NCBI GenBank assembly: GCA_958295785.1
Contig: OY282377.1
Span: forward strand, 1,750,394 to 1,814,393
DNA length: 64,000 nt
Direction: 5' to 3'
DNA from: an uncultured Latescibacterota bacterium
GTDB lineage: Bacteria > Latescibacterota > UBA2968
A program made the position numbers and the translations under genes. The first letter of the stretch is position 1. The number at the start of each line of letters is the position of its first letter. The notes below the pieces were generated by a model, which searched no databases, was not told where the DNA came from, and was given only the letters and a program-made list of their open reading frames with translations. Shown piece by piece: positions 16,051 to 53,329 of this stretch.

Positions 16051-16124
16051 GGGGATACCTCGGTGCAATGACATGCGCGTGCGACGGAATGACGGCGGGC
16101 GAGTGTCTTGCGTCTTGTATCTTT

Positions 16125-16151
16125 GGGCGAGCACGGGGGCATCGCCCCTAC
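16125..16151 (+). repeat. REP-like palindromic repeat
   Basis: GGGCGAGCACGGGGGCATCG followed by CCCCTAC, in the spacer between P2 and R1. Confidence 0.75.
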
Positions 16152-16189
16152 ACACTTCTTGTATCTTCCGGCAGACACGTCCGCACCGT

Positions 16190-16769
16190 ATTCGGCGTAA
16201 TTGGGCGCGATCAGGGACGCGGCCCCGGCAACATCGGGCGTTTGTCGCACGAGCATGGTGTGATCGTCATACCGCATGCCAATGGATGGCTGAAAATGCC
16301 CCACGCGCAACGCGGGCCAGTTGTAATTGGGCTGATAAATCGCCGACGCGGTCCACGCCCGTTGCCCATCGTATTTCTCCGGGCCAAAATTGTACGTACC
16401 TTCAACCTTGAGGGCATTGGAGGGCCGCACGACGCCATACAGCGCGGCTTGCATTGGAAACACCCGCCGCTCGGCGTCTGGGGAAACATGAGACCGCGCC
16501 ATTTGCCCGCGCACATCCGCACCCAACAGCAACAGGCCATCGGCAAACGCGGTCTTGCCCGGCAAAACGTAATTGGGCGCGAGCACCCCCACGCCATCCA
16601 TCGAATACTGCCCCAACTCATCCCGCTGCGCCCCGCCCTGCGTGCTGACGTGGCAGTTGATGCAGCGATTGCCCGTTAGCAATGCAAATTGCGACAGTGC
16701 CTCGGCCTGTCCCATCCATCCGATACCGAATAGGATCGCCCATCCCAACACGCGAAAATACGTTGTCAT
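16190..16769 (-). pseudogene. P-family protein, 3'-truncated copy P2
   Basis: Matches the intact P copy for about 194 residues from the signal peptide to APNYAEYGA, then runs into array spacer and the start of R1 without the remaining beta-barrel half. The open frame continues to 16017, but those residues are spacer-derived and overlap R1. The RCINCH motif is kept. It sits 36 bp downstream of R2, the same R-P spacing as in the other units, so it is a duplicated R-P unit broken by deletion. Confidence 0.85.
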
Positions 16770-16805
16770 ACTTTTATTCCTTCTTGCCATTCATCGGGAA
16801 ATTCG

Positions 16806-17711
16806 TCACGCATCCCCATTCAACAAACGCTGAAATTCATCCAGTTTATCCACTTGCACCGCCGCACGAAGCAACCACTTGAGCCGTTGCAAATCGTCAA
16901 TCGCGGCGATGGGAGCAGCAAAGGGATGTGCAGGGATCAGACCAAAGCGAACCTCCAACACTTCGAGGATATCTTCAATCGCACGTTCTCTGACCCCTCG
17001 CTCAATGCCCTGCTCAATGCCCTGTTCCTTGAGGTATTGGGCAAAGGATGATTCACGCATAATCGCGTCCATAAGACCCTCCTGGGAAATGATACTCGTG
17101 ATGGTGCTTGGCTCGTACACCAAGCCACTCAATAATGCCAACCCACCTAAAAAGTCAACCTTGGTTGCATGATCCAATGACACATCATCGGTCCTGCGGA
17201 TACACTGACGCAACCATTCCTCTGAAGCCATTCCCGCAGGACGCTTCATCAATGGCGCAAACGGTAGCAGGCCATGATGACCGCCCGCGACAATATCTTG
17301 CCCCTCAATTTCACTCAACCGAATCACCTTGTATTGCACAAAGAAGCGATGGCCGGGCAACCTTTGGATAAAGCGTCCTTTATCGCGTCGCCCGGCATTG
17401 GGTCGCAAGTAGATCACAAAGGAATAGACCGGCAGGCCATACTGCTCAATGATTCGGATTTTATAGCCTGCCATGCGGATCGGCATGGGCGTATCCGTGC
17501 TGTCGGTGGTTTGAAATTCCGTGTGAACCAAGGCCTCCTCGCCATCGATCCGCACGAGAATCAAGCTGTCTGTTCGGTGCATTTCGACCTTGGGTTGTTC
17601 GGTTTCGAGGATTGCGCGGACCTCGATGTCGTCTCGTCCAAGTGTAAAATAGACGATGTCTTTCGGATAAGTTTGAATCAGGCGTTTGGAAATCGCATCG
17701 TATTCGGCCAT
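16806..17711 (-). CDS. Rpn-family PD-(D/E)XK nuclease, copy R2
   Basis: 301 residues, nearly identical to R1 except that the tetrapeptide array has contracted to one GIEQ plus GIER (16998-17021). This is the minimal allele in the window and shows that the array is dispensable for keeping the frame open. Catalytic D48, E65 and Q67 are conserved. Small differences from R1 include Y21-F22-T23 in place of H-F-A. It is followed by the truncated P2 copy after 36 bp. Confidence 0.9.
   Translation of the reverse strand: MAEYDAISKRLIQTYPKDIVYFTLGRDDIEVRAILETEQPKVEMHRTDSLILVRIDGEEALVHTEFQTTDSTDTPMPIRMAGYKIRIIEQYGLPVYSFVIYLRPNAGRRDKGRFIQRLPGHRFFVQYKVIRLSEIEGQDIVAGGHHGLLPFAPLMKRPAGMASEEWLRQCIRRTDDVSLDHATKVDFLGGLALLSGLVYEPSTITSIISQEGLMDAIMRESSFAQYLKEQGIEQGIERGVRERAIEDILEVLEVRFGLIPAHPFAAPIAAIDDLQRLKWLLRAAVQVDKLDEFQRLLNGDA
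16998..17021 (-). repeat. 12-bp VNTR in R2 (2 units)
   Basis: Two units only (GIEQ and GIER), against 14, 6 and 14 in R1, R3 and R4. Confidence 0.9.
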
Positions 17712-17863
17712 GGGGATACCTCGGTTTGCGTAGCGTCTATAAAATAAGCCCGTGGCGTATGGACGAACCTACAGAAAAAAAAACAAAAGTCACTGGATTA
17801 CTTACGTTGTGCTTGCGCGTGCGACGGAATGACGGCGGGCGAGTGTCTTGCGTCTTGTATCTT

Positions 17864-17890
17864 CGGGCGAGCACGGGGCCAGGCCCTACT
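17864..17890 (+). repeat. REP-like palindromic repeat, variant
   Basis: GGGCGAGCACGGGGCCAGGC followed by CCTAC; identical to the copy at 23586-23611 in the equivalent spacer. The rest of the 17712-17995 spacer holds ATCCGCGTAATCC-like short repeats and no gene. Confidence 0.65.
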
Positions 17891-17995
17891 GTTGCTTTTC
17901 CTCCGAGAACTCTGCACTCTTTGCGTCGTCTGTGTTTTCTGCACCCTCCGCCCTCCCTGCGCCGCCCAATCCGCGTAATCCATTTAATCCGCGAT

Positions 17996-19078
17996 TCAGA
18001 CAGCTTCAATCAGCGCAAGATCGGTCACAACGTCAATTTGGTTGAACCCGCACGGCTCGGCTTCTTCTTCCAATTGGGGCCAGAAGTATTCGTAGCCCTC
18101 GGCTATTGCATCCAACTCGACCCAGGTTCGCCAAAGCAAACCGGCGTCAGAGTGATGGAGCCACGTACAGCCGAGATCATACAGCCCTTGCTTTACCGCT
18201 TCCGCTTCCGAATTGCCATCAATTGTTGTCCAAAACCATCTACCCATCGTTCGAATCGATTCACGGGCTTCATCCTTGAATATATACGGATGTCTCTCCG
18301 GAAGATAATCATCAATGTGTATCAAAGCCATCTTTTGGAATTGATTACCACTCACATCACTGCCACCGTCGCTGAGTGTCATAGTTGCTCTAACAAGAGT
18401 TTCCAAGTTGCCGCCGAGCAACGAAAAGTAACCATCCGTGGGATTCGTCGTAATGATACGCTCCGGGTCGCCGCCAACGGCGATGTTGTACCTTTGTGCG
18501 ACCAACTTCCGAATCCCATATAGGAGGTCGTAGATATTTTGCAGTCGGCCGCGGATGTCGCTGGAAAGCCGAAGGCCAAAGTTGAGCACGAGAGACGAGG
18601 ACAACGAGTCGTTAAACTTTGAAAAATCATTGCAGAGACCTGAAAGAGCACGCAGGTCAACCCCCTCACCGGACACGGCTTGGCGAAGCACGTATTCCAA
18701 GGCGTGTCGAAAGTTGTTTTCCGCAACTTGGATGTCGATGCGATCAACTTTCGACACGATATAATCAACCTTGCGTTCAATGCGATCCACCGTCTCTTGG
18801 AGACGATCCATTTTTCTGTGCAGGCCGGCAACTTGTCTGGCAATGTACACGGAAACGCCCAGAGTCAGAAATGAACAGATGAGATTGGCCCCGGCCAAGC
18901 CAGCAGTCAAGCCCGATGCACTCGTGTTCATCGCGTTGGCAGGCAGTTCTCCGCTGTCTGCCGGCAGGTATCGGATGTTCTGCGGATTCATAATCGGCCC
19001 GTCCTGACCGAGCACTTGATACGCGAGCCTTCCAGACTGCCCAGGCCCCAGTTTGTCAAACGGAACAGTGTTCATCAT
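17996..19078 (-). CDS. M-family membrane/coiled-coil protein, copy M1
   Basis: 360 residues, family not recognised. An N-terminal segment of about 50 residues is followed by a hydrophobic span at about 57-80 (LTAGLAGANLICSFLTLGVS) and a predicted coiled coil at about 83-125 (LHRKMDRLQETVDRIERKV). The rest is a soluble, mostly helical domain ending DLALIEAV. GGAGGAGA precedes the ATG pair. A 48-residue ORF lies directly upstream. Compared with M3 the sequence is almost identical to about residue 236 and from about 301 onward, but residues 237-300 are different, suggesting segmental exchange or diversification. The function is unknown. Confidence 0.8.
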   Translation of the reverse strand: MMNTVPFDKLGPGQSGRLAYQVLGQDGPIMNPQNIRYLPADSGELPANAMNTSASGLTAGLAGANLICSFLTLGVSVYIARQVAGLHRKMDRLQETVDRIERKVDYIVSKVDRIDIQVAENNFRHALEYVLRQAVSGEGVDLRALSGLCNDFSKFNDSLSSSLVLNFGLRLSSDIRGRLQNIYDLLYGIRKLVAQRYNIAVGGDPERIITTNPTDGYFSLLGGNLETLVRATMTLSDGGSDVSGNQFQKMALIHIDDYLPERHPYIFKDEARESIRTMGRWFWTTIDGNSEAEAVKQGLYDLGCTWLHHSDAGLLWRTWVELDAIAEGYEYFWPQLEEEAEPCGFNQIDVVTDLALIEAV

Positions 19079-19090
19079 CGTCTCCTCCCA

Positions 19091-19237
19091 TTAGGGTGAA
19101 CCGCGTTTGAGTTCGTTCACAAAACGAACGATTTCACCTGGGTCATGAGAACACAATCGCGGTTTTGTGTCGCCATACATCCACGTGCCCATACCGAGCG
19201 CGAGGACAAATGCGATTGCGCTGATGATCTTCCACAT
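19091..19237 (-). CDS. Small membrane-anchored ORF (48 residues) upstream of M1
   Basis: Begins WKIISAIAFVLALG like the 81-residue protein at 14068-14313, then GTWMYGDTKPRLCSHDPGEI and a tail ending NELKRGSP. One hydrophobic helix and a polar tail. GGAGTGAGCC precedes the start. The tail is repeated at 24804-24887 before M3, so tail plus M forms the duplicated cassette. It ends 12 bp before M1 and is probably co-transcribed with it. The function is unknown. Confidence 0.6.
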   Translation of the reverse strand: MWKIISAIAFVLALGMGTWMYGDTKPRLCSHDPGEIVRFVNELKRGSP

Positions 19238-19322
19238 GGCTCACTCCGAGAATATCAGTTGTCTTGGAAATGCCCTTGTCCATTGCAGTCGAAATCTCAA
19301 ATTAACCACGGGAATTTGCGAA

Positions 19323-19349
19323 GGGCGAGCACGGGGGCATCGCCCCTAC
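19323..19349 (+). repeat. REP-like palindromic repeat
   Basis: GGGCGAGCACGGGGGCATCG followed by CCCCTAC, first of two copies in the 19238-19529 spacer, which holds no gene. Confidence 0.75.
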
Positions 19350-19420
19350 ACACACTCGCCTTTTGTGCCTTTGAACGGGTTGTCGCCAGTTGTGGCTAAA
19401 CTTCCATCTCGCCTTTCTTT

Positions 19421-19447
19421 GGGCAGGCACGGGGGCATCGCCCCTAC
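19421..19447 (+). repeat. REP-like palindromic repeat
   Basis: GGGCAGGCACGGGGGCATCG followed by CCCCTAC. Its flanks (TTTTGTGGGGTTGGTTTTCG) match those at 14399-14426, so this copy was duplicated with the P 3' region. Confidence 0.8.
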
Positions 19448-19529
19448 GTTTTTGTGGGGTTGGTTTTCGCCTTTCATCCGCGCAATCCGCGTCATCCGTT
19501 TCATCCGCGATCCATCTTCCCTCTCACCT

Positions 19530-20681
19530 TTAATAAAACACATGCAGTTGCAGCGCGTAGCGCGATGAGCGAAAGGTCTCGGTATCGAGCACGCGGTATT
19601 CGGGGCGCAACTCGATTTGCGGCGTCAAAAACATCTGGATGCCCAACACGGCTTGCCGCGTGGTCAAATCGAGACGGTTTTCTGCGGTGCGGATCACAGT
19701 GCCGCGTTCCCCGCGCGCAAACAAAAGCAAGCCGGGCCTTGCTTGAAAAGAGACATCGACCGAAGCGGTTTTTGTCTCGCGTGTGCCATCCTTGTCGGAC
19801 AAGGCGTATTCGACCATAACCGCGACCTTGTCCTGCATCCCCACCCCGGCAAAAAGGTTCGTCAGCAGAAAATCGCCATTTTTAAGCCATGACCCACCGA
19901 GATAAAAATTGATCTTCTGCTCGACCCAGCGCGGCCACAACACCACGCGCCCCAAAAAGGACGGTTTATCGCGGTCTGCGATCAAAGAGACCGGTGTGCC
20001 GCTGGCGTCTCGCACGGTGTTTTCGGCGAGGGCGTGGGCGCGATAAATCCCCGCGGTCAGGGACAGCCACAACTTTTTGTAATAATGCACTTCCGCGCCG
20101 TATTCGGCATAATTGGGCGCGATCAGGGACGCGGCCCCGGCAACATCGGGCGTTTGTCGCACGAGCATGGTGTGATCGTCATACCGCATGCCAATGGACG
20201 GCTGAAACTGCCCCACGCGCAACGCGGGCCAGTTGTAATTGGGCTGATAAATCGCCGACGCGGTCCACGCCCGTTGCCCATCGTATTTCTCCGGGCCAAA
20301 ATTGTACGTACCTTCAACCTTGAGGGCATTGGAGGGCCGCACGACGCCATACAGCGCGGCTTGCATTGGAAACACCCGCCGCTCGGCGTCTGGGGAAACA
20401 TGAGACCGCGCCATTTGCCCGCGCACATCCGCACCCAACAGCAACAGGCCATCGGCAAACGCGGTCTTGCCCGGCAAAACGTAATTGGGCGCGAGCACCC
20501 CCACGCCATCCATCGAATACTGCCCCAACTCATCCCGCTGCGCCCCGCCCTGCGTGCTGACGTGGCAGTTGATGCAGCGATTGCCCGTTAGCAATGCAAA
20601 TTGCGACAGTGCCTCGGCCTGTCCCATCCATCCGATACCGAATAGGATCGCCCATCCCAACACGCGAAAATACGTTGTCAT
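19530..20681 (-). CDS. P-family outer-membrane-type protein with CxxCH motif, full-length copy P3
   Basis: 383 residues, the only complete P copy. An N-terminal signal peptide (MTTYFRVLGW...GQAEA) is followed by RCINCH at 35-40, a c-type haem attachment motif. The rest is a long run of alternating amphipathic strands (for example WPALRVGQFQPSIGMRYD, VDVSFQARPGLLLFARGERG) ending in a C-terminal aromatic (HVFY), as in outer-membrane beta-barrels. A role as a periplasmic or outer-membrane electron-transfer or porin-like protein is inferred from this architecture. It follows R3 by 36 bp, and both probably share a transcript. The ATG at 20681 gives the best signal peptide. Confidence 0.8.
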   Translation of the reverse strand: MTTYFRVLGWAILFGIGWMGQAEALSQFALLTGNRCINCHVSTQGGAQRDELGQYSMDGVGVLAPNYVLPGKTAFADGLLLLGADVRGQMARSHVSPDAERRVFPMQAALYGVVRPSNALKVEGTYNFGPEKYDGQRAWTASAIYQPNYNWPALRVGQFQPSIGMRYDDHTMLVRQTPDVAGAASLIAPNYAEYGAEVHYYKKLWLSLTAGIYRAHALAENTVRDASGTPVSLIADRDKPSFLGRVVLWPRWVEQKINFYLGGSWLKNGDFLLTNLFAGVGMQDKVAVMVEYALSDKDGTRETKTASVDVSFQARPGLLLFARGERGTVIRTAENRLDLTTRQAVLGIQMFLTPQIELRPEYRVLDTETFRSSRYALQLHVFY

Positions 20682-20717
20682 ACTTTTATTCCTTCTTGCC
20701 ATTCATCGGGAAATTCG

Positions 20718-21671
20718 TCACGCATCCCCATTCAACAAACGCTGAAATTCATCCAGTTTATCCACTTGCACCGCCGCACGAAGCAACCACTTGAGCCGTT
20801 GCAAATCGTCAATCGCGGCGATGGGAGCAGCAAAGGGATGTGCAGGGATCAGACCAAAGCGAACCTCTAACACTTCGAGGATATCTTCAATCGCACGTTC
20901 TCTGACCCCTCGCTCAATGCCCTGCTCAATGCCCTGCTCAATGCCCTGTTCAATACCCTGCTCAATGCCCTGTTCAATGCCCTGTTCCTTGAGGTATTGG
21001 GCAAAGGATGATTCACGCATAATCGCGTCCATAAGACCCTCCTGGGAAATGATACTCGTGATGGTGCTTGGCTCGTACACCAAGCCACTCAATAATGCCA
21101 ACCCACCTAAAAAGTCAACCTTGGTTGCATGATCCAACGACACATCATCGGTTCTGCGGATACACTGACGCAACCATTCCTCTGAAGCCATTCCCGCAGG
21201 ACGCTTCATCAATGGCGCAAACGGTAGCAGGCCATGATGACCGCCCGCGACAATATCTTGCCCCTCAATTTCACTCAACCGAATCACCTTGTATTGCACA
21301 AAGAAGCGATGGCCGGGCAACCTTTGGATAAAGCGTCCTTTATCGCGTCGCCCGGCATTGGGTCGCAAGTAGATCACAAAGGAATAGACCGGCAGGCCAT
21401 ACTGCTCAATGATTCGGATTTTATAGCCTGCCATGCGGATCGGCATGGGCGTATCCGTGCTGTCGGTGGTTTGAAATTCCGTGTGAACCAAGGCCTCCTC
21501 GCCATCGATCCACACGAGAATCAAGCTGTCTGTTCGGTGCATTTCGACCTTGGGTTGTTCGGTTTCGAGGATTGCGCGGACCTCGATGTCGTCTCGTCCA
21601 AGTGCAAAATGGACGATGTCTTTCGGATAAGTTTGAATCAGGCGTTTGGAAATCGCATCGTATTCGGCCAT
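20718..21671 (-). CDS. Rpn-family PD-(D/E)XK nuclease, copy R3
   Basis: 317 residues, nearly identical to R1, R2 and R4, with five GIEQ plus GIER. It carries R54W (ILVWIDGEE), the only substitution I saw near the nuclease core among the copies. D48, E65 and Q67 are intact. It forms the only complete R-P pair, with P3 36 bp downstream. Confidence 0.9.
   Translation of the reverse strand: MAEYDAISKRLIQTYPKDIVHFALGRDDIEVRAILETEQPKVEMHRTDSLILVWIDGEEALVHTEFQTTDSTDTPMPIRMAGYKIRIIEQYGLPVYSFVIYLRPNAGRRDKGRFIQRLPGHRFFVQYKVIRLSEIEGQDIVAGGHHGLLPFAPLMKRPAGMASEEWLRQCIRRTDDVSLDHATKVDFLGGLALLSGLVYEPSTITSIISQEGLMDAIMRESSFAQYLKEQGIEQGIEQGIEQGIEQGIEQGIERGVRERAIEDILEVLEVRFGLIPAHPFAAPIAAIDDLQRLKWLLRAAVQVDKLDEFQRLLNGDA
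20910..20981 (-). repeat. 12-bp VNTR in R3 (6 units)
   Basis: Six 12-bp units, including one with ATACCC in place of ATGCCC (GIEQ with GGT ATT), a variant also seen once in R1. Confidence 0.95.
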
Positions 21672-21744
21672 GGGGATACCTCGGTGCAATGACATGCGCG
21701 TGCGACGGAATGACGGCGGGCGAGTGTCTTGCGTCTTGTATCTT

Positions 21745-21771
21745 CGGGCGAGCACGGTGGCATCGCCCCTA
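21745..21771 (+). repeat. REP-like palindromic repeat
   Basis: GGGCGAGCACGGTGGCATCG followed by CCCCTAC, in the 21672-21931 spacer, which holds no gene. Confidence 0.7.
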
Positions 21772-21790
21772 CACACCTCTTGTATCTTCC

Positions 21791-21815
21791 GGCAGACACG
21801 GTGGCATCGCCCCTA
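21791..21815 (+). repeat. REP-like palindromic repeat, partial
   Basis: GGCAGACACGGTGGCATCGC followed by CCCTA; second copy in the same spacer, 20 bp after the first. Confidence 0.6.
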
Positions 21816-21931
21816 GTTTTGCTTTTCATCCGAGAACTCTGCACTCTTTGCGTCGTCTGTGTTCTCTGCACCCTCTGCCCTCCCTGCGCCGCCCAATCCG
21901 CGTAATCCGCGTAATCCGTTTAATCCGCGAT

Positions 21932-22437
21932 TCAGACAGTTTCAATCAACGCAAGATCGGTCACAACGTCAATTTGGTTGAACCCGCACGGCGTAGCTTC
22001 TTCTTCCAATTGGGGCCAGAAGTATCCGTAGCCCTCGGCTATTGCATCCAACTCGACCCAGGTTCGCCAAAGCAAACCGGCGTCAGAGTGATGGAGCCAC
22101 TTACAGCCGAGATCACACAGCCCTTGCTTTACCGCTTCCGCTTCCGAATTGCCATCAATTGTTGTCCAAATCCATCTACCCATCGTTCGAATCGATTCAC
22201 GGGCTTCATCCTTGAATATATACGGATGTCTCTCCGGAAGATAATCATCAATGTGTATCAAAGCCATCTTTTGGAATTGATTACCACCATTATTATCACT
22301 GAGTGTCATAGTTGCTCTAACAAGAGTCTCCAAGTTGCCGCCGCGCAACGAAAAGTAACCATCCGTGGGATTCGTCGTAATGATACGTTCCGGGTCGCCG
22401 CCAACGGCCATGTTGTACCTTTGTGCGACCAACTTCC
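21932..22437 (-). pseudogene. M-family protein, 5'-truncated copy M2
   Basis: Only the C-terminal 168 residues of an M protein remain (from KLVAQRYNMAV to DLALIETV). At 22437/22438 the sequence switches from M coding (GACCAACTTCC) to the sequence normally found before P and after R (TTCTTGCCATTCATCGGG). So the 5' part of M2, the small ORF and a whole P gene were deleted, with TTCC as microhomology. An open frame exists but has no ribosome site of its own. Confidence 0.9.
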
Positions 22438-22462
22438 TTCTTGCCATTCATCGGGAAATTCG

Positions 22463-23512
22463 TCACGCATCCCCATTCAACAAACGCTGAAATTCATCCA
22501 GTTTATCCACTTGCACCGCCGCACGAAGCAACCACTTGAGCCGTTGCAAATCGTCAATCGCGGCGATGGGAACAGCAAAGGGATGTGCAGGGATCAGACC
22601 AAAGCGAACCTCCAACACTTCGAGGATATCTTCAATCGCACGTTCTCTGACCCCTCGCTCAATGCCCTGCTCAATGCCCTGCTCAATGCCCTGTTCAATG
22701 CCCTGTTCAATGCCCTGTTCAATGCCCTGTTCAATGCCCTGCTCAATGCCCTGTTCAATGCCCTGTTCAATGCCCTGTTCAATGCCCTGTTCAATGCCCT
22801 GCTCAATGCCCTGCTCAATGCCCTGTTCCTTGAGGTATTGGGCAAAGGATGATTCACGCATAATCGCGTCCATAAGACCCTCCTGGGAAATGATACTCGT
22901 GATGGTGCTTGGCTCGTACACCAAGCCACTCAATAATGCCAACCCACCTAAAAAGTCAACCTTGGTTGCATGATCCAATGACACATCATCGGTCCTGCGG
23001 ATACACTGACGCAACCATTCCTCTGAAGCCATTCCCGCAGGACGCTTCATCAATGGCGCAAACGGTAGCAGGCCATGATGACCGCCCGCGACAATATCTT
23101 GCCCCTCAATTTCACTCAACCGAATCACCTTGTATTGCACAAAGAAGCGATGGCCGGGCAACCTTTGGATAAAGCGTCCTTTATCGCGTCGCCCGGCATT
23201 GGGTCGCAAGTAGATCACAAAGGAATAGACCGGCAGGCCATACTGCTCAATGATTCGGATTTTATAGCCTGCCATGCGGATCGGCATGGGCGTATCCGTG
23301 CTGTCGGTGGTTTGAAATTCCGTGTGAACCAAGGCCTCCTCGCCATCGATCCGCACGAGAATCAAGCTGTCTGTTCGGTGCATTTCGACCTTGGGTTGTT
23401 CGGTTTCGAGGATTGCGCGGACCTCGATGTCGTCTCGTCCAAGTGTAAAATAGACGATGTCTTTCGGATAAGTTTGAATCAGGCGTTTGGAAATCGCATC
23501 GTATTCGGCCAT
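22463..23512 (-). CDS. Rpn-family PD-(D/E)XK nuclease, copy R4
   Basis: 349 residues with 13 GIEQ plus GIER, the same count as R1 but a different order of GAG/GAA units. PD-(D/E)XK residues D48, E65 and Q67 are conserved. Instead of a P gene, its 3' side abuts the M2 remnant because of the deletion at 22437/22438. A single A-to-V change (HPFAVPIAA) in the C-terminal domain sets it apart. A longer reading to 23740 runs through spacer and is rejected. Confidence 0.9.
22655..22822 (-). repeat. 12-bp VNTR in R4 (14 units)
   Basis: Fourteen units, richer in the GAA (TTC) form than R1, again pointing to independent expansion. Confidence 0.95.
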
Positions 23513-43452: not shown

Positions 43453-45157
43453 ATGGAACTGCACGAACTCGTCCTTGAAATGAAGCAAACGGATTTCAGC
43501 CGGTGGAAAGGCATTTACGAAACTTGGCAACGCCGCAAAGCAACGTACAGCGCACAAATCCACCAACGCGATCCCGCAGACGCATTGCGCGTGCAACCCG
43601 TTTATTGATGTGGTTGAAAATCCCCTCAAATCTCTTGCCGATTACAGTTACTTTGTCGCTGAAACCTTGAAACGCCTAGGTTTTGATATGCCCATTCTGA
43701 ACTGGCTGACACGAGATGAAGATATACGCGCCGCTGCTCGCGTTCCCTATCGCTTGTTGGAAGAAGTGCTCGACTTTTCCACTGGCGACTTCGGTGCGGG
43801 CAATATGTTGATCCATGGCGACAATCTGGACGCGCTCAAGGCGTTGTTGCCGTTTTACGCCGGGCGCGTGAAGTGCATCTATATTGATCCGCCGTACAAT
43901 ACACGCTCGGCTTTTGAACATTACGACGACAATCTCGAACACGCGCAGTGGCTGGCGATGATGTGGCCGCGCCTCGAACTGTTGCGGGAGATGCTCGCCG
44001 AGGACGGGTCCATTTGGGTGTCCGTTGATGATGATGAAGGACACTACTTAAAGGTTGCTATGGATGAGATATTTGGGCGGAGTAATTTTGTGGCGAATGT
44101 CATTTGGCAAAAAAACACACTCGCGCCAATGATGCGCGGTGGTTCAGCGACAACCATGACTATATAATTGTCCATGCAAAAAACAAAGACGAATGGAAAC
44201 TCAATCTATTACCTCGTAGCGAAGAACAGGATAGCGGATTTTCCAACCCCGACGATGATCCCCGAGGACCTTGGGCTTCACAGCCCATACAAGTGAAAAC
44301 CCCGAGTCAAAAGTATATTTATTCAATTCAAAATCTGGCCGGTAAAGAGTTTTGGCCTCCCAAAGGAAGGAGTTGGCAGTTTTCCAAGGAGCGTTTCGAC
44401 GAATTGGTGGCGGATGATCGTATATGGTTTGGAAAAACTGGAACAAACGTTCCCAGAATCAAGAAATTTCTTTCGGAGGTGCAAAGCGGCATTACACCAG
44501 TGACAATATGGCCTCACCAAGAAGTCGGTCACAACCAAGACGCAAAGCAAGAGGTCAAGGCATTTAATCCCGGTGATGTCTTCAGCACGCCCAAGCCCGA
44601 ACGCCTACTCCATCGCATCCTCCACATCGCCACCACCCCCGGCGATCTCGTCCTCGATTCCTTCCTCGGCTCTGGCACAACGGCGGCGGTCGCGCACAAG
44701 ATGGGGCGGCGTTACATCGGCATTGAGTTGGGCGAGCACGCGGTCACGCATTGCGTCCCGCGCTTGAACAAAGTCATCGAAGGCGAGCAGGGCGGCATCT
44801 CCAAAAGCGTCAACTGGCAGGGCGGCGGCGGGTTTCGCTTCTATCGCCTCGGCCCGCCCGTGTGAAGAGGACGGGCAAATTCGGTCGGACATTCGCTTTC
44901 CCTTGCTCGGCCTGCACGATGGTCGCGCCTATGCCCTGCTCTACAACGGCAACTTAGGCGACAAGCACCCCGGCAATGGCAATGTGCTGACGCGATCCAC
45001 GCTGGCGTGCATCCGTGTGGAAATCGCCAAAGCGCGTCCCGGCTTCAATGGCCCGCTGACAATCTATGGCGAGCAATCGCGCTTGACGCCGCAGGCCCTC
45101 AACCACGAGGCGATCACCTTCAAGCAAGTTCCCTACGATGTGCAAGTGCGAGACTGA
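43453..45157 (+). pseudogene. mod: Type III R-M methyltransferase (Mod), three frameshifts
   Basis: Read in four pieces the protein is a normal Mod. The first (43453-43605) has ELHELVLEMKQTDFSRWKGI. The second has the FxGxG-region substitute GDNLDALKALLPF and the catalytic DPPYN. The third has TRANDARWFSDNHDYIIVHA and the SAM motif DSFLGSGTTAA. The fourth has GRAYALLYNGNLGDKHPG and the YGEQ tail. Breaks are an extra T at 43606, one A missing from an A run (7 left) at 44109-44115, and a shift at about 44862. About 15 residues usual before PLLG also seem to be lost. The first two breaks are in homopolymers, so sequencing error is an alternative. GAGAAACAC precedes the ATG. Confidence 0.9.
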
Positions 45158-46857: not shown

Positions 46858-48123
46858 ATGGTCATTACCCCTGAAAATATCGGGCAACGCTTGCGTTTTG
46901 CACGCGAAAGTCGGCAGATCACACAAGAGGCCGCCAGCACAGTGCTCGGCTTACAGCGTTCCGCGATCAGCCTCATGGAATCCGGGCAGCGTCAGGTCTC
47001 CACGCTCGAACTGACCCGTCTTGCGGATCTATACGGTCAGCCGGTTGAATGGTTTGTCAATCCGAACATCCCGGTCAAACCGGAAGACCCGGTCGTCGCG
47101 CTCTTTCGCGCCGCGCCGGGCCTGCAAGGTGAGATCGTCCAAAAACAGGCGTCGCATTGCCTGCGCTTGCTCAGAGAAGGGGCATTGTTGCGGCGGCTGA
47201 TTGGCCGCAAGGCCGTTGTCTCTCTGCCGCGTTACGATTTGTCATCTCCGCGATCAGTGGGGCAGGCCATTGACCAGGGCCAACTCGTCGCCGAACAGGA
47301 ACGGCGGCGTCTCGGTTTGGGCAAAGCACCCGTGCGAGAAGTCCCCGAAATGTTAGCTCACCAAAATATATGGACCGCGGCTTTGTCTCTGCCGGATGAA
47401 ATCTCGGGCCTCTTTCTGAGCAGCCCCGACTTCGGCATGGCAATTTTGGCAAACCTCACCCAAGCACCCGTGCGGCGACGGTTTTCTTATGCCCACGAAC
47501 ACGGTCACGCGCTTATGGACCGCGATGAGTTCGCGACGGTTACGAGCACCCACAACGCCAAGACGAGGACCGAACAGCGAGCCAATGCCTTTGCCGCCGC
47601 TTTTCTCATGCCCGAAGAGGGCGTGCGAGATTTTCTGTACAACTTGGGCAAGGGCAGAGGAACGCGCCGCGAAGAAGCCGCGATGGATGCCGTCACCGAA
47701 GAGGGCATTCGGGGGGCATTGCGAAACCCGGCGCGTTCGCAATATGTGACCTATGTAGATGTGGCACTGTTGGCCCGGCATTTTGGCGTGAGCTATGCAG
47801 CGGCGGTCTGGCGCCTGCGCGGCTTGAATTTTGCAAGTGCCGACCAAACCCAAACGCTTCTCGACCAGACCCATGACGCCAATCGGTATCTGTGGGCTAT
47901 AAAGGCGTTCTCCCATGCTGGCTTCAAACCTACTGGAGCAGGTGTCGATGCCTCCAAAGGCGAATCCCCTGCCGAAGCGCATCGGGACAGCGAGTTGAAT
48001 TGGCAGGTTTTGTCGCTGGCCATGGAAGCGCGGTGGCGCGGAGAGATTTCGCAGGGCCGTCTGCTCGAGGTGGGGCGGCTGTTGGATATCAAGGACGAGA
48101 CGATCCTCGATTTGGTCAATTGA
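46858..48123 (+). CDS. XRE-type helix-turn-helix regulator with ImmA/IrrE metallopeptidase domain
   Basis: 421 residues. HTH_3 domain at about 8-62 (IGQRLRFARESRQITQEAAS, VLGLQRSAISLMESGQRQVS). The C-terminal ImmA/IrrE zinc peptidase has AHEHGHALMDR near residue 212 (HExxH) and EQRANAFAAAFLMPE following, the usual third-ligand region. Such proteins are often antitoxins or regulators cleaved or activated by stress. GGAGGTGCGAC precedes the ATG. The PIN gene starts 10 bp after its stop, so the two look like a toxin-antitoxin pair. Confidence 0.9.
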   Translation: MVITPENIGQRLRFARESRQITQEAASTVLGLQRSAISLMESGQRQVSTLELTRLADLYGQPVEWFVNPNIPVKPEDPVVALFRAAPGLQGEIVQKQASHCLRLLREGALLRRLIGRKAVVSLPRYDLSSPRSVGQAIDQGQLVAEQERRRLGLGKAPVREVPEMLAHQNIWTAALSLPDEISGLFLSSPDFGMAILANLTQAPVRRRFSYAHEHGHALMDRDEFATVTSTHNAKTRTEQRANAFAAAFLMPEEGVRDFLYNLGKGRGTRREEAAMDAVTEEGIRGALRNPARSQYVTYVDVALLARHFGVSYAAAVWRLRGLNFASADQTQTLLDQTHDANRYLWAIKAFSHAGFKPTGAGVDASKGESPAEAHRDSELNWQVLSLAMEARWRGEISQGRLLEVGRLLDIKDETILDLVN

Positions 48124-48133
48124 GGCACATTGG

Positions 48134-48652
48134 ATGCAGCGACAAAGCGCGATACCGATTGTTCTCGATGCGTCGGTCCTGCTGAATTTTGTGAAGATTG
48201 GTCGGATCGAGTTGCTCGGCCAGATCGGTACAGTGGTCGTACTGCTCGACCAAGTTTTTGATGAGGTGCGGCGTCCTGATCAAAGGAAGGCGGTTGAAGA
48301 TGCCGTGGCGGCAGGCATCCTTGATTTACAAAGTGTTCGCAATACAGTGGAGGTCGCTCTATTCGCCGATCTTCGCGCAGATGGACGGCTTGGCGCAGGC
48401 GAATGTGCTGTCTTGGCCGTTGCCCTCACTCGAGGTTGGGTCGCTGGACTTCAGGACAAAAGAGCGTGCGTTGAAGGGCAACGCCGATGCAAAGACCTAG
48501 CACTCTGCCAGACAGAGGATTTGGTTTTGGAACTGATCCAGACAGGACATCTAACCCTCAAAGAAGCCGACGGTTTTCTCATTGAGTGGGCGGTAAAGCA
48601 CCGCTTCAAATCCAAGCTCACCAGTTTTCGCAAGAGGTATCCACCCACCTAA
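48134..48652 (+). CDS. PIN-domain (DUF3368-like) putative toxin
   Basis: 172 residues. PIN-fold acidic residues appear as D12 (VLDASVLLNF), E44 (FDEVRRP), E90 (GRLGAGECAVLAVAL) and D108 (LQDKRACVE), which would bind metal for RNA cleavage. The C-terminal segment (KSKLTSFRKRYPP) is basic. It is placed right after the XRE-ImmA/IrrE gene and 18 bp before the CBASS cyclase. No strong ribosome site is seen, so expression may be coupled to the upstream gene. Confidence 0.8.
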   Translation: MQRQSAIPIVLDASVLLNFVKIGRIELLGQIGTVVVLLDQVFDEVRRPDQRKAVEDAVAAGILDLQSVRNTVEVALFADLRADGRLGAGECAVLAVALTRGWVAGLQDKRACVEGQRRCKDLALCQTEDLVLELIQTGHLTLKEADGFLIEWAVKHRFKSKLTSFRKRYPPT

Positions 48653-48670: not shown

Positions 48671-49636
48671 ATGGCAAGACAACACGTTGACCACAGCGAT
48701 ATCGTTCGGTTTGCCCAAGATAAGGTGAACCTACCTAAGGATAAGGCATCCGGGTATCGCGCTCAAGCACGCCGACTCCGAGAGAGGCTTGACAGCTATC
48801 TTTCTGAGCACCCAGACTTTAGCCTAAAAAAAATTCTCATGGCGGGCAGCTTGGCGAAAGGCACGCCCCTGCGTTCTCTCAACGATATCGATATGGCCTG
48901 CTACATCAGTGGCGCAGATACTCCGCAAGAGGTGGGAGACCTGTTGGAATATCTCGCTGAGAGGCTACGAACGGCATTTCCGAACTTCAAATCCGATCAA
49001 GTGACGCCACAAACGTACAGTGTAACCGTGTCGTTTCGAGGATCAGGGCTTGATGTTGATGTTGTGCCTATTCTCTATGATGGCGACCCGGATTGGTACG
49101 GTAATCTCGTCAGTCAAGATGATGGATCATTTTTAGAGACTAACATCGCCTTTCATTTGGAGTTCATACGCAAACGAAAGAAAGAGCAGGAAAGACATTT
49201 TGCCCAGGTTGCACGGTTGCTCAAATTTTGGGTCAAAAATGTCAAACGAGAGCGTGAGGATTTTCGGTTCAAATCTTTCATGGTTGAGTTAATACTGGCT
49301 CATCTGTGTGATCGGGGAGATGACTTCGCCGATTATCCCGAAGCACTTCAGCATTTTTTTACTTATGTTGCTCGTAGCAACCTACGGGAAAGAATCGTAT
49401 TTGACGACTACTATGATCCATCTGAGGTCGGTTCATTTTCTGAACCTATTCAGATCATTGATCCGGTAAATCAAGCGAATAACGTCAGCAAGCTCTACAC
49501 CAATTCTCAGGCTGAGGCTATAGTCGATGCTGCTCTCGATGCGGGCGACGCTATAGATGCAACACTCAGAGCACCTACAAAGGGCGAGACCGTTTACTAC
49601 TGGCAGAAGGTCTTCGGACCTTCCTTTTCAATGTGA
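48671..49636 (+). CDS. CBASS cyclic oligonucleotide synthase (CD-NTase)
   Basis: 321 residues, a CD-NTase/nucleotidyltransferase that makes a cyclic nucleotide second messenger on infection. The pol-beta active site is visible as AGSLAKGTPLRSLNDIDM (G59-S60, D72-x-D74) and the third acid as D130 in LDVDVVPI. Length is typical. AGAGAGGCAACA precedes the ATG. It is the first gene of the CBASS set and is followed by HORMA 8 bp after its stop, which identifies it as type III CBASS. The nucleotide product cannot be inferred. Confidence 0.92.
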   Translation: MARQHVDHSDIVRFAQDKVNLPKDKASGYRAQARRLRERLDSYLSEHPDFSLKKILMAGSLAKGTPLRSLNDIDMACYISGADTPQEVGDLLEYLAERLRTAFPNFKSDQVTPQTYSVTVSFRGSGLDVDVVPILYDGDPDWYGNLVSQDDGSFLETNIAFHLEFIRKRKKEQERHFAQVARLLKFWVKNVKREREDFRFKSFMVELILAHLCDRGDDFADYPEALQHFFTYVARSNLRERIVFDDYYDPSEVGSFSEPIQIIDPVNQANNVSKLYTNSQAEAIVDAALDAGDAIDATLRAPTKGETVYYWQKVFGPSFSM

Positions 49637-49644
49637 GGATAACA

Positions 49645-50157
49645 ATGAGCTACAGCCATACGATTTCTGAAACGACGACCTTTACTTTAACCCACGCTAG
49701 ACACATAGCGGCGAAGGTCGCCACCGATTTGAAACGGATGCAGCGGTTTTACGGAAACCTTAGCGATACTCGTATCGCAGATTATGAAATTGAAGCCATT
49801 GCACTGTTAAAGGCCGGCTATCTCGGAACGGTGGCCTATGGATTTCGCCGTAACGGCAACTGGATTGAGCCGACGCTGAAATATACGGCGCAGGAACTTG
49901 CAGAGGGATCGGCATCTGACGACCCGGGACGAATTCGACCTGGTGCCAATATTGATGGTGCCACTTTTTCTAGTTATCTCACCTACAGCTCAAATTGGGA
50001 CGATCTATCGGACTCTGAAAAGGAGAATTTTAAAAAAAGCCTCCCGTTTCGACGGAGTGGTGCATCCGAACCCGGTGTGAGCGGATACTTCAGCACCGAT
50101 CTGGTGTACTCGGCCGGTGGTCAAGCACTGAACCGCGCAAGTGTAAGGAGCTATTGA
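49645..50157 (+). CDS. Bacterial HORMA-domain protein (CBASS type III)
   Basis: 170 residues. Starts MSYSHTISETTTFTLTHARH, followed by KVATDLKRMQRFYG and GTVAYGFRRNGNWIEPTLKY, with the GASEPGVSGYFSTDLVYSAG end that forms the safety-belt region of bacterial HORMA proteins. HORMA binds phage-derived peptides, then the CD-NTase, activating it; TRIP13 resets it. The ATG at 49645 is used; AGGATAACA precedes it. The stop overlaps the TRIP13 start as TGATG. Confidence 0.9.
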   Translation: MSYSHTISETTTFTLTHARHIAAKVATDLKRMQRFYGNLSDTRIADYEIEAIALLKAGYLGTVAYGFRRNGNWIEPTLKYTAQELAEGSASDDPGRIRPGANIDGATFSSYLTYSSNWDDLSDSEKENFKKSLPFRRSGASEPGVSGYFSTDLVYSAGGQALNRASVRSY

Positions 50158-51210
50158 TGGTCAATATACCTGCTATCGACGACCTCTTTGAACATCGTCT
50201 CACTTACCCGGATGTCGATATTCGCGAGCGACTCGCACGCCTTGTTGGCTTGGATGACCATAAAACACGACTGACGAAGATACTTAGTCTGTTGATCAAC
50301 CCAAGTGGGCTAGAGGTATGGGCAAAGAAATATCACCCTAGTGCTGGTGAATTAGTGAACACATTTCTTAGACGCCCTCCCCTTGTCGTGCTTGCCGGCG
50401 ACGTTGGTTCCGGTAAGACAGAACTTGCTGAAACGATTGGAGACGCCGTTGCTCAACAGGAGAAAATTGACATAACACTCTTTCCCTTGAGCCTCTCGAC
50501 TCGTGGACAAGGCCGGGTGGGCGAGATGACGCAACTTCTGTCTGCGGCGTTTGATCGCACTATCTCGGAGGCGAGCAAGCTAAAAGGTACATGCGGCCGG
50601 TCATGTGGCGCGGTTATTCTTTTGGTAGATGAGGCTGATGCGCTGGCACAATCGCGGGAGGCCGCTCAGATGCACCACGAGGATCGGGCTGGTGTGAATG
50701 CTTTCATTCGGGGTATAGACCGCCTTGCAAATAGAAGTCTCCCCGTTGCGGTCATTATGTGTACTAAGAGTCCCTAACAAAAAGCGTTGACATGGATTTG
50801 TGAGAGGCCGACTTCGAGGCGTTCCTGCGGGTGTTCACTCATCTGTTTCAGACGCTTGATTTCTTTATGTTAGGGCTTCTAACAGGCTCGGCGCACTTGA
50901 TCCGGCTGTGCGGCGGCGAGCAGCGGATATTTTGACCTTTGCGCGGCCCGATGAGAAGCAACGATATGCAGTGCTCAAGTCACCCCTCAATCAGCTTGGA
51001 TTCTCAAGATCGCAGATCCAAGACGTTGTAGAGGCTACCGGTGAACGGAAAGAGTATGACTACGGGTTCACATTCTCCGATCTGACGCAACGCCTACTGC
51101 CTATGATCGTGCTAGACGCATACCCAAATGAAAAAGTTGATCCGACCCGTGCGTTGGAGATTGCACGGAAAATAGTTCCAACAGAACCTTTTCAGGAGAA
51201 TAACCAATGA
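50157..51210 (+). pseudogene. TRIP13/Pch2-like AAA+ ATPase, interrupted by a 112-bp MITE
   Basis: The intact gene would encode 312 residues. The first part (50157-50767) has Walker A GDVGSGKTEL at 81-90 and Walker B VILLVDEADALAQ at about 153-165. At 50768 an insertion brings a stop two codons later. Joining 50767 to 50883 restores RLGALDPAVRRRAADI and the rest through IVPTEPFQENNQ. An active TRIP13 disassembles the HORMA-peptide complex. Only truncated pieces can be made, so control of the CBASS cyclase may be lost. The last codons overlap the nuclease start as ATGA. Confidence 0.93.
50768..50879 (+). mobile_element. 112-bp MITE-like insertion in the TRIP13 gene
   Basis: Ends are GAGTCCCTAACA and, inverted, GAAGCCCTAACA (10 of 12 match). 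It is flanked by a TAA direct duplication (50765-50767 and 50880-50882). Removing the element plus one TAA restores the TRIP13 frame. Nothing is encoded. A 3-bp TWA-type duplication fits IS5-like elements. Confidence 0.9.
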
Positions 51211-51935
51211 CTGACTGGTCTCTTTCGCAGATTCTGGGAACCCTGAACGATACCATCCAGTGTCGTTTGGATGGTGCTCGCAAAGGTCTTAGTCATCCTG
51301 GTACCAAAGGCGATGCAAGCGAAAATATATGGCTGGAACTATTCCAAACGTATTTGCCCAAGCGTTATCAAGTTGCAAAAGCCCATGTGGTCGATAGCAA
51401 AGGTAACTTTAGCGAACAAATCGATGTTGTAGTATTCGATAGGCAATACTCGCCATTTATTTTTTTTTATGAAGGCCAAAAAATAATCCCCGCGGAAAGT
51501 GTTTATGCCGTATTCGAGGTCAAACAGTCGATCAACGCCTGTCATATCCGCTATGCTCAGGATAAGGTGGCAAGTGTACGGCGTCTTCATCGTACGAGCT
51601 TGTCGATTCCACATGCAGGCGGCGAATTTAAAGAGAAGACTCTCATTCCTATTTACGGAGGATTACTAACGTTTGAAAGCGACTGGAAAAACCCTGCTTT
51701 AGGAAAGTCCTTATTAAAAGCTCTCAAGACTGAACAAGAGGGAGATAAACACCTCGATTTAGGTTGCGTTGCGGCGCATGGGTATTTCAGTTTTGAGAAA
51801 GATGAGGGATATAAAATCAACGAACAAAGAAAGCCTACGACAGCGTTTTTATTTTGGCTAATTTCACAACTTCAGTCCCGCGGTACCGTCCCAATGATTG
51901 ACGTTCAAGCTTATGCGGAATGGTTAACTAAATAA
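51207..51935 (+). CDS. DUF6602-like nuclease, presumed CBASS effector
   Basis: 242 residues. A PD-(D/E)XK-like core: HPGTKGDASENIWLELFQTY with an acidic residue near 39, FSEQIDVVVFDRQYS (D near 74), and AVFEVKQSI (E-x-K near 104). This suggests a DNase activated by the cyclic nucleotide. It is the last gene of the CBASS set. CAGGAGAATAACC precedes the ATG, and the start overlaps the TRIP13 stop as ATGA. The effector role is inferred from position and fold; the family is not among the common NucC-type effectors. Confidence 0.75.
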   Translation: MTDWSLSQILGTLNDTIQCRLDGARKGLSHPGTKGDASENIWLELFQTYLPKRYQVAKAHVVDSKGNFSEQIDVVVFDRQYSPFIFFYEGQKIIPAESVYAVFEVKQSINACHIRYAQDKVASVRRLHRTSLSIPHAGGEFKEKTLIPIYGGLLTFESDWKNPALGKSLLKALKTEQEGDKHLDLGCVAAHGYFSFEKDEGYKINEQRKPTTAFLFWLISQLQSRGTVPMIDVQAYAEWLTK

Positions 51936-52037: not shown

Positions 52038-52748
52038 TTAAGTTATTCTAAGTTTTGAATTGTCTGGATAAACGCGTTGATAATGGGTATTCATCTTGTC
52101 TCTGGCCTTGGGCAAAGTGAACTGCCAATTCAAGGGGATACCCTTGGCCTCCCGCTCCTGAAAGAAGGCCAAAACTTCCCGGCGCAGTTCCGCCTGCGTC
52201 GCGATGCGCCTATTCAAACATCCTCGCGCCAGAGCCGAAAATTCGATCTCGATCATGTTGAGCCAACTCGCCGACTTGGGAGTAAAGAAGAACTCAAACT
52301 TCTGCGCGAGGGCAAACGCCTCATCGGCCGGCAAGTAACGATAGAAGGCATGGCGGGTATGCGTATTGAGATTGTCTTGCACCAAGCGGATTTTCTCCGC
52401 TTGTGGCCAATGCTGTGTCAGCGCCTGACAAAAGTGGGTGTATTCCTTCATCGTGCGCCGGGGATAGATTTCGGCAAGCCGTTTGCCGGTTAAAGGCTCA
52501 ATGGCAGCCAACAGCGCACGCGAGCCGTGTTTGGTATAGGCATCATGTTCTTTGGTCACTTGGCCTGTTGTCAGGGGCAAGGGATCCAGGACTTGTCCGA
52601 TGAGAAAACAAGGACGTTCATCAAAGCAGACCACAGGAACGTTGGGATCATAAGGTTGGTCATACAGCCAAAGCAAGGCTTCCATGCGTGCGAGAAAGGA
52701 CGCATCCACTTTGCGGATGCACCAGGTTTTCTTCAAGTGGGGCTTCAA
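52038..52748 (-). CDS. IS630-family transposase, catalytic part (orfB)
   Basis: About 236 residues. The DDE residues fit VVCFDERPC (first D), LVQDNLNTH (second D) and SWLNMIEIEF (third, E), spaced as in IS630. ORF B is in the -1 frame relative to orfA and shares the A7 run (52754-52760) where frameshifting would join them. Read alone, it starts at a poor ATG. C-terminal NTHYQRVYPDNSK is complete. Confidence 0.88.
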   Translation of the reverse strand: MKPHLKKTWCIRKVDASFLARMEALLWLYDQPYDPNVPVVCFDERPCFLIGQVLDPLPLTTGQVTKEHDAYTKHGSRALLAAIEPLTGKRLAEIYPRRTMKEYTHFCQALTQHWPQAEKIRLVQDNLNTHTRHAFYRYLPADEAFALAQKFEFFFTPKSASWLNMIEIEFSALARGCLNRRIATQAELRREVLAFFQEREAKGIPLNWQFTLPKARDKMNTHYQRVYPDNSKLRIT

Positions 52749-53167
52749 TTCGTTTTTTTGAGACTCGTCTTGACATGCGTGTGTGAGAGATGCTCACAAG
52801 AGCCCAATGCCACGCAGTGATCCGCCAAGAGGCGCAACGTCCATCTGCCATGGCCTGCCGGGGGGGTTGAACAGGCCAAGGCGGTGATTTGGGCCCGTTG
52901 CTTGCCGGTCATCTCCACCGGGCGTCCTGGCCGCGGGGCATCTTTGAGGCCATCCAAGCCGAGGGTGCGGTATTTCTTTGCCCAATTGCTCAGGGTCTGT
53001 CCGGTCATGCCGAGGGTTTGAGCCACTTGGGTGTAGGTTTTGCCTCGGTCAAGTTCAAGCAAGCCCAAGGCGCGTTTGTAGATTCGGGCTTTTTGGTCGC
53101 CTTTGGTGATCAAGGCGGTCAAAGTATCTCGGTCTGTGGGGGTGAGTTGGACGTGTTGTTTGGGCAT
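52745..53167 (-). CDS. IS630-family transposase, DNA-binding part (orfA)
   Basis: 140 residues. Helix-turn-helix region YTQVAQTLGMTGQTLSNWAK, then a WTLRLLADHCVA segment that normally continues into the catalytic domain. The frame ends just past an A7 run; a -1 shift there continues into orfB. CAAGGAGGCGTTCGC precedes the ATG at 53167. Confidence 0.85.
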   Translation of the reverse strand: MPKQHVQLTPTDRDTLTALITKGDQKARIYKRALGLLELDRGKTYTQVAQTLGMTGQTLSNWAKKYRTLGLDGLKDAPRPGRPVEMTGKQRAQITALACSTPPAGHGRWTLRLLADHCVALGSCEHLSHTHVKTSLKKTN

Positions 53168-53329
53168 GCGAACGCCTCCTTGAAACAATTGAAATTCCAA
53201 ATTATTTAATTTACGGAGTATTTAACTATGCAACGTCACTGGCTGAAATCGCTTGATTTCCTTTCAAGTGAGGTATGGAGGTCTTTTTATGACATCCCGT
53301 AGTACGACGCATACAAATGGAGCATTTTT

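What the first reader, a model, noticed from the sequence alone, without database searches (positions are those of the whole stretch)
50157..51210. Type III CBASS operon whose TRIP13 regulator is split by a 112-bp MITE
Seen directly: 12-bp imperfect inverted ends (GAGTCCCTAACA/GAAGCCCTAACA), a TAA duplication, and an exact restored frame after removal. Known biology: TRIP13 dissociates the HORMA-peptide complex that activates the CD-NTase, so loss would either leave the cyclase unchecked or make the system inert. Either the operon is dying or this state is tolerated because HORMA is not engaged without a phage peptide. The element encodes nothing, so a full-length relative should be elsewhere in the genome.
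Basis: partly seen in the sequence, partly recalled or inferred. Interest (0 to 1): 0.8.

Follow-up and report, generated by a model that had tools for sequence, protein, structure and literature searches.

The report
Jumping DNA broke CBASS off-switch gene
A short non-coding jumping element, present in over a hundred copies in this bacterium and descended from a larger jumping gene still resident there, has landed in the gene for the off-switch of an otherwise intact-looking anti-phage suicide system, giving a natural knock-out of a kind already known for other defence genes.

Summary
Confirmed. Window 48671-51935 encodes CD-NTase, HORMA, TRIP13 and NucC, whose nearest solved relatives are the E. 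coli MS115-1 CdnC-HORMA-TRIP13 complex and NucC-type nucleases. TRIP13 is interrupted by 115 extra bases: a 112-bp element plus a 3-bp duplication. In 52 of 53 related loci TRIP13 is one open frame with the normal spacing; the 53rd shows no TRIP13. The element is a MITE: 124 core matches genome-wide, control 0, and it consists of the two ends of a resident 927-bp IS5-family element with 44 transposase matches at 90% identity or more. One other copy is identical over 112 bases and five differ by one, so the insertion looks recent. Cyclase, HORMA, NucC and both TRIP13 pieces keep nearly all invariant residues, and no second TRIP13 was found. TRIP13 is null by sequence. Whether the system is primed without its off-switch, silent or decaying cannot be told here. 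IS/MITE inactivation of cas genes is already in print. By-finding: pairs of the same MITE bound an amplified cargo gene (12 cassettes).

The parts
46858..48123 (+). HTH fused to M78/ImmA-IrrE-like peptidase: putative regulator upstream of the operon (linked to CBASS by position only)
   Evidence: Pfam HTH_31, HTH_3, Peptidase_M78; PADLOC RmrA, weaker capP/capH
48134..48652 (+). small protein matching PADLOC PDC-S70 (PIN-like is recalled, not tested)
   Evidence: PDLC05071 E 7.9e-11; no Pfam hit
48671..49636 (+). CD-NTase (CdnC-like)
   Evidence: PDLC00808 E 4.8e-143; NF041116; PDB 6p80_A E 5e-143; 68 of 69 invariant columns kept
49633..50157 (+). HORMA (Cap7)
   Evidence: PF18138, PDLC00884, 6p8v_H; 29 of 29 invariant columns kept
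50157..50777 (+). TRIP13 (Cap6) N-terminal piece, ends at a stop inside the element
   Evidence: PDLC00914 positions 4-195; 6p8v_A residues 5-204
50765..50767 (+). TAA, left copy of the 3-bp target duplication
   Evidence: +115 against 52 homologues
50768..50879 (+). 112-bp MITE
50880..50882 (+). TAA, right copy of the target duplication
50881..51210 (+). TRIP13 C-terminal piece; no ribosome-binding site seen by eye; first listed in-frame start is GTG at 50908
   Evidence: PDLC00914 positions 193-301; 6pb3_A 204-310
51207..51935 (+). NucC effector endonuclease
   Evidence: PDLC00745 E 3.4e-105; 6q1h, 6p7o; 33 of 33 invariant columns kept
52038..53200 (-). IS630-family transposase in two ORFs; neighbour only, its ends differ from those of the MITE
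   Evidence: NF033545; sequence

Best explanation
Shown: a 112-bp MITE, made of the two ends of a 927-bp IS5-family element that is still present in dozens of copies, sits in the TRIP13 gene of a CdnC-HORMA-TRIP13-NucC (type III) CBASS, and puts a stop and a frame change into it. Inferred: the MITE was moved in recently, in trans, by that element's transposase; the operon itself was acquired horizontally. Inferred: the truncated TRIP13 keeps Walker A and B but lacks sensor 1, the arginine-finger region and the small domain (motif names recalled) and cannot work as the AAA+ disassembly machine. Inferred: the rest of the operon still encodes a working cyclase, HORMA and nuclease, so the cell carries a CBASS without its attenuator, tolerated because HORMA stays unengaged without its peptide and/or because the operon is weakly expressed or repressed.
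For: Spacing +115 against 52 of 52 TRIP13-bearing relatives. 124 core matches, control 0. The MITE aligns to the first 44 and about the last 64 bases of a 927-bp IS with DUF4096, DDE_Tnp_1 and NF033580 (IS5) matches; 44 of 47 transposase matches are at 90% identity or more. Recency: one other copy 112/112 identical and five with one mismatch among 76 full-length copies; the window departs at 1 of 93, 1 of 69, 0 of 29 and 0 of 33 invariant columns in TRIP13, cyclase, HORMA and NucC. No second TRIP13. HORMA found in 0 of 59 other genomes from genus to phylum. The IS has no match in any of 10 other genomes of the genus.
Against: No expression, read or phenotype data. Translation stops about 430 bases before NucC, so polarity may already silence NucC (though no terminator-like site was found). 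What TRIP13 loss does in vivo could not be read: the primary paper (Ye et al. 2020) is not held. Flanking triplets of MITEs genome-wide match no more often than the TWA preference predicts (33 of 64), so the transposition footprint is not clean in general.
Confidence: 0.8

Rival explanations
1. The operon is inert and decaying: TRIP13 loss plus polarity silenced it, and the other genes are intact only because too little time has passed.
For: Stop and frame change upstream of NucC; the MITE RNA folds better than shuffles (z -2.47); one relative, L112, keeps the cyclase but its HORMA homology ends at residue 67 and no TRIP13 or NucC match lies in the 9.2 kb held; the neighbouring methylase gene is split at an A7 tract.
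Against: No visible decay in the three other genes or in the C-terminal TRIP13 piece; no terminator-like site.
Confidence: 0.35
2. Loss of the off-switch is favoured or tolerated as a more sensitive CBASS; TRIP13 is dispensable in nature.
For: cap6 annotated as frameshifted beside intact cyclase, cap7 and nucC in E. coli MY504 pMY504-2; in K. quasipneumoniae pWP5-S18-ESBL-05_3 cap6 is missing from the gene table and is matched in two pieces beside intact cyclase, cap7 and nucC. TRIP13 is in two pieces in 2 of 43 plasmid records of at least 60% identity, the cyclase in 1 of 43.
Against: TRIP13 is one open frame in 52 of 53 named relatives. Single-base frameshifts may be sequencing errors, many of the 43 records are near-identical, and MY504 holds a second copy with intact cap6 and a frameshifted cyclase.
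Confidence: 0.2
3. Two-chain TRIP13: the pieces are made separately and reassemble.
For: The C-terminal piece stays open and well conserved.
Against: The first listed in-frame start (GTG 50908) lies after the interruption and nine codons into the C-terminal homology, with no ribosome-binding site that I can see. Conservation is explained by recency.
Confidence: 0.02
4. Assembly artefact.
For: Repeats of more than 100 copies can mis-assemble; reads were not available.
Against: Single-contig genome, flanks that are the two halves of one gene, exact +115 spacing.
Confidence: 0.03

Closest known systems
E. coli MS 115-1 type III CBASS (CdnC, Cap7/HORMA, Cap6/TRIP13, NucC)
   Same: Gene order; its complex (6p8v, 6p80) and NucC are among the best PDB matches of the four proteins; TRIP13 N-piece 75.5% identical to E. 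coli plasmid copies
   Different: TRIP13 interrupted; upstream there is a same-strand HTH-M78 fusion plus a PDC-S70 gene, where MS 115-1 has an HTH gene and an ImmA/IrrE peptidase gene on the opposite strand
IS and MITE insertions that inactivate cas genes (PMC10359306, passages seen)
   Same: Mobile elements, MITEs included, inserted in defence genes
   Different: That text does not contain the word CBASS; here a negative regulator is hit
IS-derived MITEs of prokaryotes (review PMC10969869, passages seen)
   Same: Short, non-coding, inverted ends, more than 100 copies, related full-length element
   Different: Nothing in kind; the review speaks of intragenic examples as reported cases beside the usual intergenic ones

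Membership tests
Type III CBASS | CD-NTase | tested here: met
Type III CBASS | HORMA protein | tested here: met
Type III CBASS | effector (NucC) | tested here: met
Type III CBASS | intact TRIP13-like ATPase | tested here: not met
   Family member present but split by the MITE; no other copy found. So: a type III CBASS by descent, with TRIP13 as a pseudogene
Type III CBASS | phage protection | not testable with these tools
MITE | short, no transposase gene, terminal inverted repeats | tested here: met
   112 bp, 10 of 12 end bases match
MITE | many copies in one genome | tested here: met
   124 core matches; 76 full-length copies read with flanks
MITE | target duplication | tested here: inconclusive
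   Met at TRIP13 by +115 = 112 + 3; over the genome only 33 of 76 copies have identical triplets
MITE | ends shared with an autonomous element | tested here: met
   927-bp IS; that its transposase is active was not tested
IS5 family (the parent) | DUF4096 plus DDE transposase | tested here: met
   PF13340, PF01609; NF033580 above its cut-off for the second ORF (115.8 against 110), below it for the first (101.3)
IS5 family (the parent) | IS427 group placement | not tested
   Only recalled from the two-frame layout and TNA-type targets; no ISfinder at hand

The most novel reading that the evidence does not exclude
A naturally TRIP13-null type III CBASS that is expressed and lives: the HORMA-CD-NTase switch does not need its ATPase to stay off, and losing it merely makes the alarm more sensitive or longer lasting.
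Probability: 0.2. Interest if true: 0.6.

Novelty: new member of a known kind. Interest (0 to 1): 0.36.

Why it matters
TRIP13/Pch2 is the conserved remodeller of HORMA proteins from bacteria to humans. A natural null beside intact-looking CD-NTase, HORMA and NucC genes is a ready test of whether the off-switch is needed to keep a suicide system quiet. It also shows that a burst of a non-autonomous element can reach the regulator of a defence system and so disarm or unleash it.

Tried and rejected
Rejected: the neighbouring IS630 element as parent of the MITE (its ends, read by eye, differ). Rejected: a second TRIP13 in the genome (the other three matches cover only profile positions 74-263 at most, and the same family search rings in 14 of 14 control genomes). 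Rejected: that the 112 bp is a normal TRIP13 segment (0 of 52 relatives). Rejected as evidence: equality of flanking triplets. No promoter-like or terminator-like site in 50600-51300. MITE not matched in plasmids and no exact core in viral contigs.

In print: the listings of four searches show no report of an interrupted TRIP13 by title or start of abstract; several listed papers were not opened (e.g. PMC12893667, PMC11109961, PMC10732049, PMC11153139), and only open-licence papers are held. Papers: PMC9122588, PMC10419184, PMC11676413, PMC13373217, PMC10359306, PMC10002423, PMC10969869: passages. PMC13367494: abstract and outline. PMC8793285: one reference-list passage. PMC4133298, PMC3934969: search listing only. 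Ye et al. 2020: not seen, recalled.

Full report
Observation. The element is 50768-50879, 112 bp, with imperfect 12-bp ends and TAA on both sides. The open frame that starts at HORMA's end stops inside the element; TRIP13 homology resumes just after it. The TRIP13 profile is hit at positions 4-195 and 206-301 of 302 by the two ORFs. Against the solved MS115-1 and Rhizobiales TRIP13 chains the pieces meet at about residue 204, within the sensor-1 stretch (motif name recalled).

Comparison with relatives. A pattern-based scan of the named genome collection with the HORMA protein, which finds close relatives only, gave 53 loci; a few are near-identical to each other. In 52 of 53 TRIP13 is present as one open frame with exactly 27 bp between the two reference points; here it is 142, so 115 extra bases, i.e. 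112 plus a 3-bp duplication. The 53rd, L112, has a HORMA whose homology ends at residue 67 and no TRIP13 or NucC match in the 9.2 kb held.

The element. Its 30-base core occurs 124 times in the genome with up to 3 mismatches, 0 in the reversed control; not all places were listed. Of the copies held with flanks, 76 distinct ones are full length; one other is identical to the TRIP13 copy over 112 bases and five differ at one base. It has no match in 40 related genomes, ten of them of the same genus, nor in the plasmid collection, and no exact core in viral contigs. Most of those 40 genomes are fragmented drafts, in which repeats can be lost.

The parent. The first 44 and about the last 64 bases of the MITE align to the two ends of a 927-bp element. 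That element encodes a transposase in two overlapping frames with DUF4096 and DDE_Tnp_1 domains; NCBIfam IS5 model NF033580 is passed by the second ORF (115.8 against 110) and missed by the first (101.3). Its first ORF matches 47 places, 44 of them at 90% identity or more, and 3 of those 44 have a stop inside. At least 40 near-full-length DNA copies exist; only 40 of 192 candidates were scored. Three copies, L127, L134 and L144, read as one frame of 302-305 residues; L134 matches only the first 914 of 927 bases. There is no match in the 10 other genomes of the genus. That its transposase moves the MITE is inference from shared ends.

A point against easy reading. Of 76 copies, 64 carry TAA or TTA on both sides, but only 33 of those 64 carry the same triplet twice, no more than chance given that preference; the IS copies behave alike. 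I cannot explain this; recombination between copies is one possibility. The duplication in TRIP13 therefore rests on the +115 spacing.

State of the operon. The best PDB matches of TRIP13, HORMA and the cyclase are chains of the E. coli MS115-1 CdnC-HORMA-TRIP13 work (6p8v, 6p80; for the TRIP13 C-piece the Rhizobiales chain 6pb3 scores better), and NucC matches 6q1h and then the MS115-1 NucC. At columns invariant in at least 98% of relatives, the window departs at 1 of 93 (TRIP13, both pieces; 52 relatives), 1 of 69 (cyclase; 49 of 53 relatives used, four short ones dropped), 0 of 29 (HORMA; 52 of 53 used, L071 dropped because my trimming failed on it, L112 kept although its tail is foreign) and 0 of 33 (NucC; the 30 relatives with a match). 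No second TRIP13 was found in the genome. HORMA is absent from 59 other genomes searched from genus to phylum, so the operon was probably acquired horizontally. The insertion looks young.

Function. [quoted passage not shown]). The truncated product should be inactive (inference). Then either signalling is undamped, or the system is quiet for another reason: HORMA not engaged, low expression, an upstream regulator, or polarity on NucC. No terminator-like or promoter-like site was found in the region; the MITE RNA folds moderately better than shuffles (z -2.47). My best estimate is a recent null whose host survives because the switch is not engaged or not much expressed.

Natural parallels. In 5,426 E. 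coli genomes, 13 carry an operon like that of MS 115-1, in 14 records; 11 of the 14 are identical to it over 3,237 bases, MS 115-1 itself included. I looked at the annotation of three of the 14. MS 115-1 itself is intact; in plasmid pMY504-2 of strain MY504 cap6 is annotated as frameshifted with cyclase, cap7 and nucC intact; in the same strain's pMY504-1 cap6 is intact and the cyclase frameshifted. A K. quasipneumoniae plasmid lacks cap6 in its gene table and matches it in two pieces. Among plasmid records of at least 60% identity, TRIP13 is in two pieces in 2 of 43 and the cyclase in 1 of 43; many of these records are near-identical. Single-base frameshifts can be sequencing errors, so these are leads, not proof.

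Known kind. Insertion sequences and MITEs in cas genes have been surveyed (PMC10359306, passages), and gene-disrupting MITEs are reviewed in PMC10969869 (passages). This case is a new member of that kind, with the feature that a negative regulator is hit. The listings of my searches show no report of an interrupted TRIP13; not every listed paper was opened.

By-finding. The same MITEs bound a cargo gene in direct pairs. Among 20 stretches fetched because they held closely spaced or otherwise chosen copies (so a biased sample), 13 same-strand pairs lie 900-1700 bp apart; 12 hold the same cargo, 1109-1441 bp, with constant inner edges. In 10 of these 12 the outer triplets match; the other two form one tandem array whose outermost triplets match too; the 13th pair, with other cargo, does not match. 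A stricter pattern scan recognised both ends in 5 of 11 cassettes, with matching triplets in all 5. Twenty-six full-length matches of the cargo gene at 95% or more lie in the genome. MITE-bounded composites are known (TIME-COMPs, PMC13367494, abstract), so this too is a variant of a known kind, but such amplification of one gene in a chromosome deserves its own look.

Noticed in passing
L040-L053 (G000 e.g. 4603548-4606694, 1534890-1536445, 5085306-5086755): MITE-gene-MITE composites: pairs of this MITE in direct orientation bound a 1.1-1.4 kb cargo with constant edges, encoding a protein that begins MAEYDTISKHLIQTYPDDF (a 70% relative had no Pfam family at E 0.001 and only repeat-region matches in NCBIfam; Rpn/PD-(D/E)XK-like is recalled). 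12 cassettes with consistent outer triplets; 26 full-length matches at 95% or more in the genome.
   Followed up: partly
window 15577-23512 (-): Four relatives (73-74% identical) of the same cargo gene lie clustered in the window; the only MITE ends found in the window are those in TRIP13.
   Followed up: no
window 43610-44865, A7 at 44109-44115: DNA methylase gene (N6_N4_Mtase in both pieces) in two overlapping frames that meet at an A7 tract: phase variation, decay or sequencing error.
   Followed up: partly
window 46858-48652: Same-strand HTH-M78 fusion and PDC-S70 gene, where MS 115-1 has HTH and peptidase genes on the opposite strand; weak homology to the fusion (26-43%) on the opposite strand in 8 of 53 relatives.
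   Followed up: partly
window 52038-53200 (-): IS630-family element with its transposase in two ORFs directly downstream of NucC.
   Followed up: no
L149-L151, L153: cap6 annotated frameshifted in E. coli MY504 pMY504-2, cap6 in two pieces in a K. quasipneumoniae plasmid, and the cyclase annotated frameshifted in MY504 pMY504-1.
   Followed up: partly
L112 4501-5028: Betaproteobacterial MAG AG20: cyclase kept, HORMA homology ends at residue 67, no TRIP13 or NucC match; the genes that follow look conjugation-related (recalled impression).
   Followed up: partly
G000, IS and MITE flanks: TWA flanks match each other no more than chance for MITEs and ISs in general but consistently at the outer ends of the composites.
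   Followed up: partly
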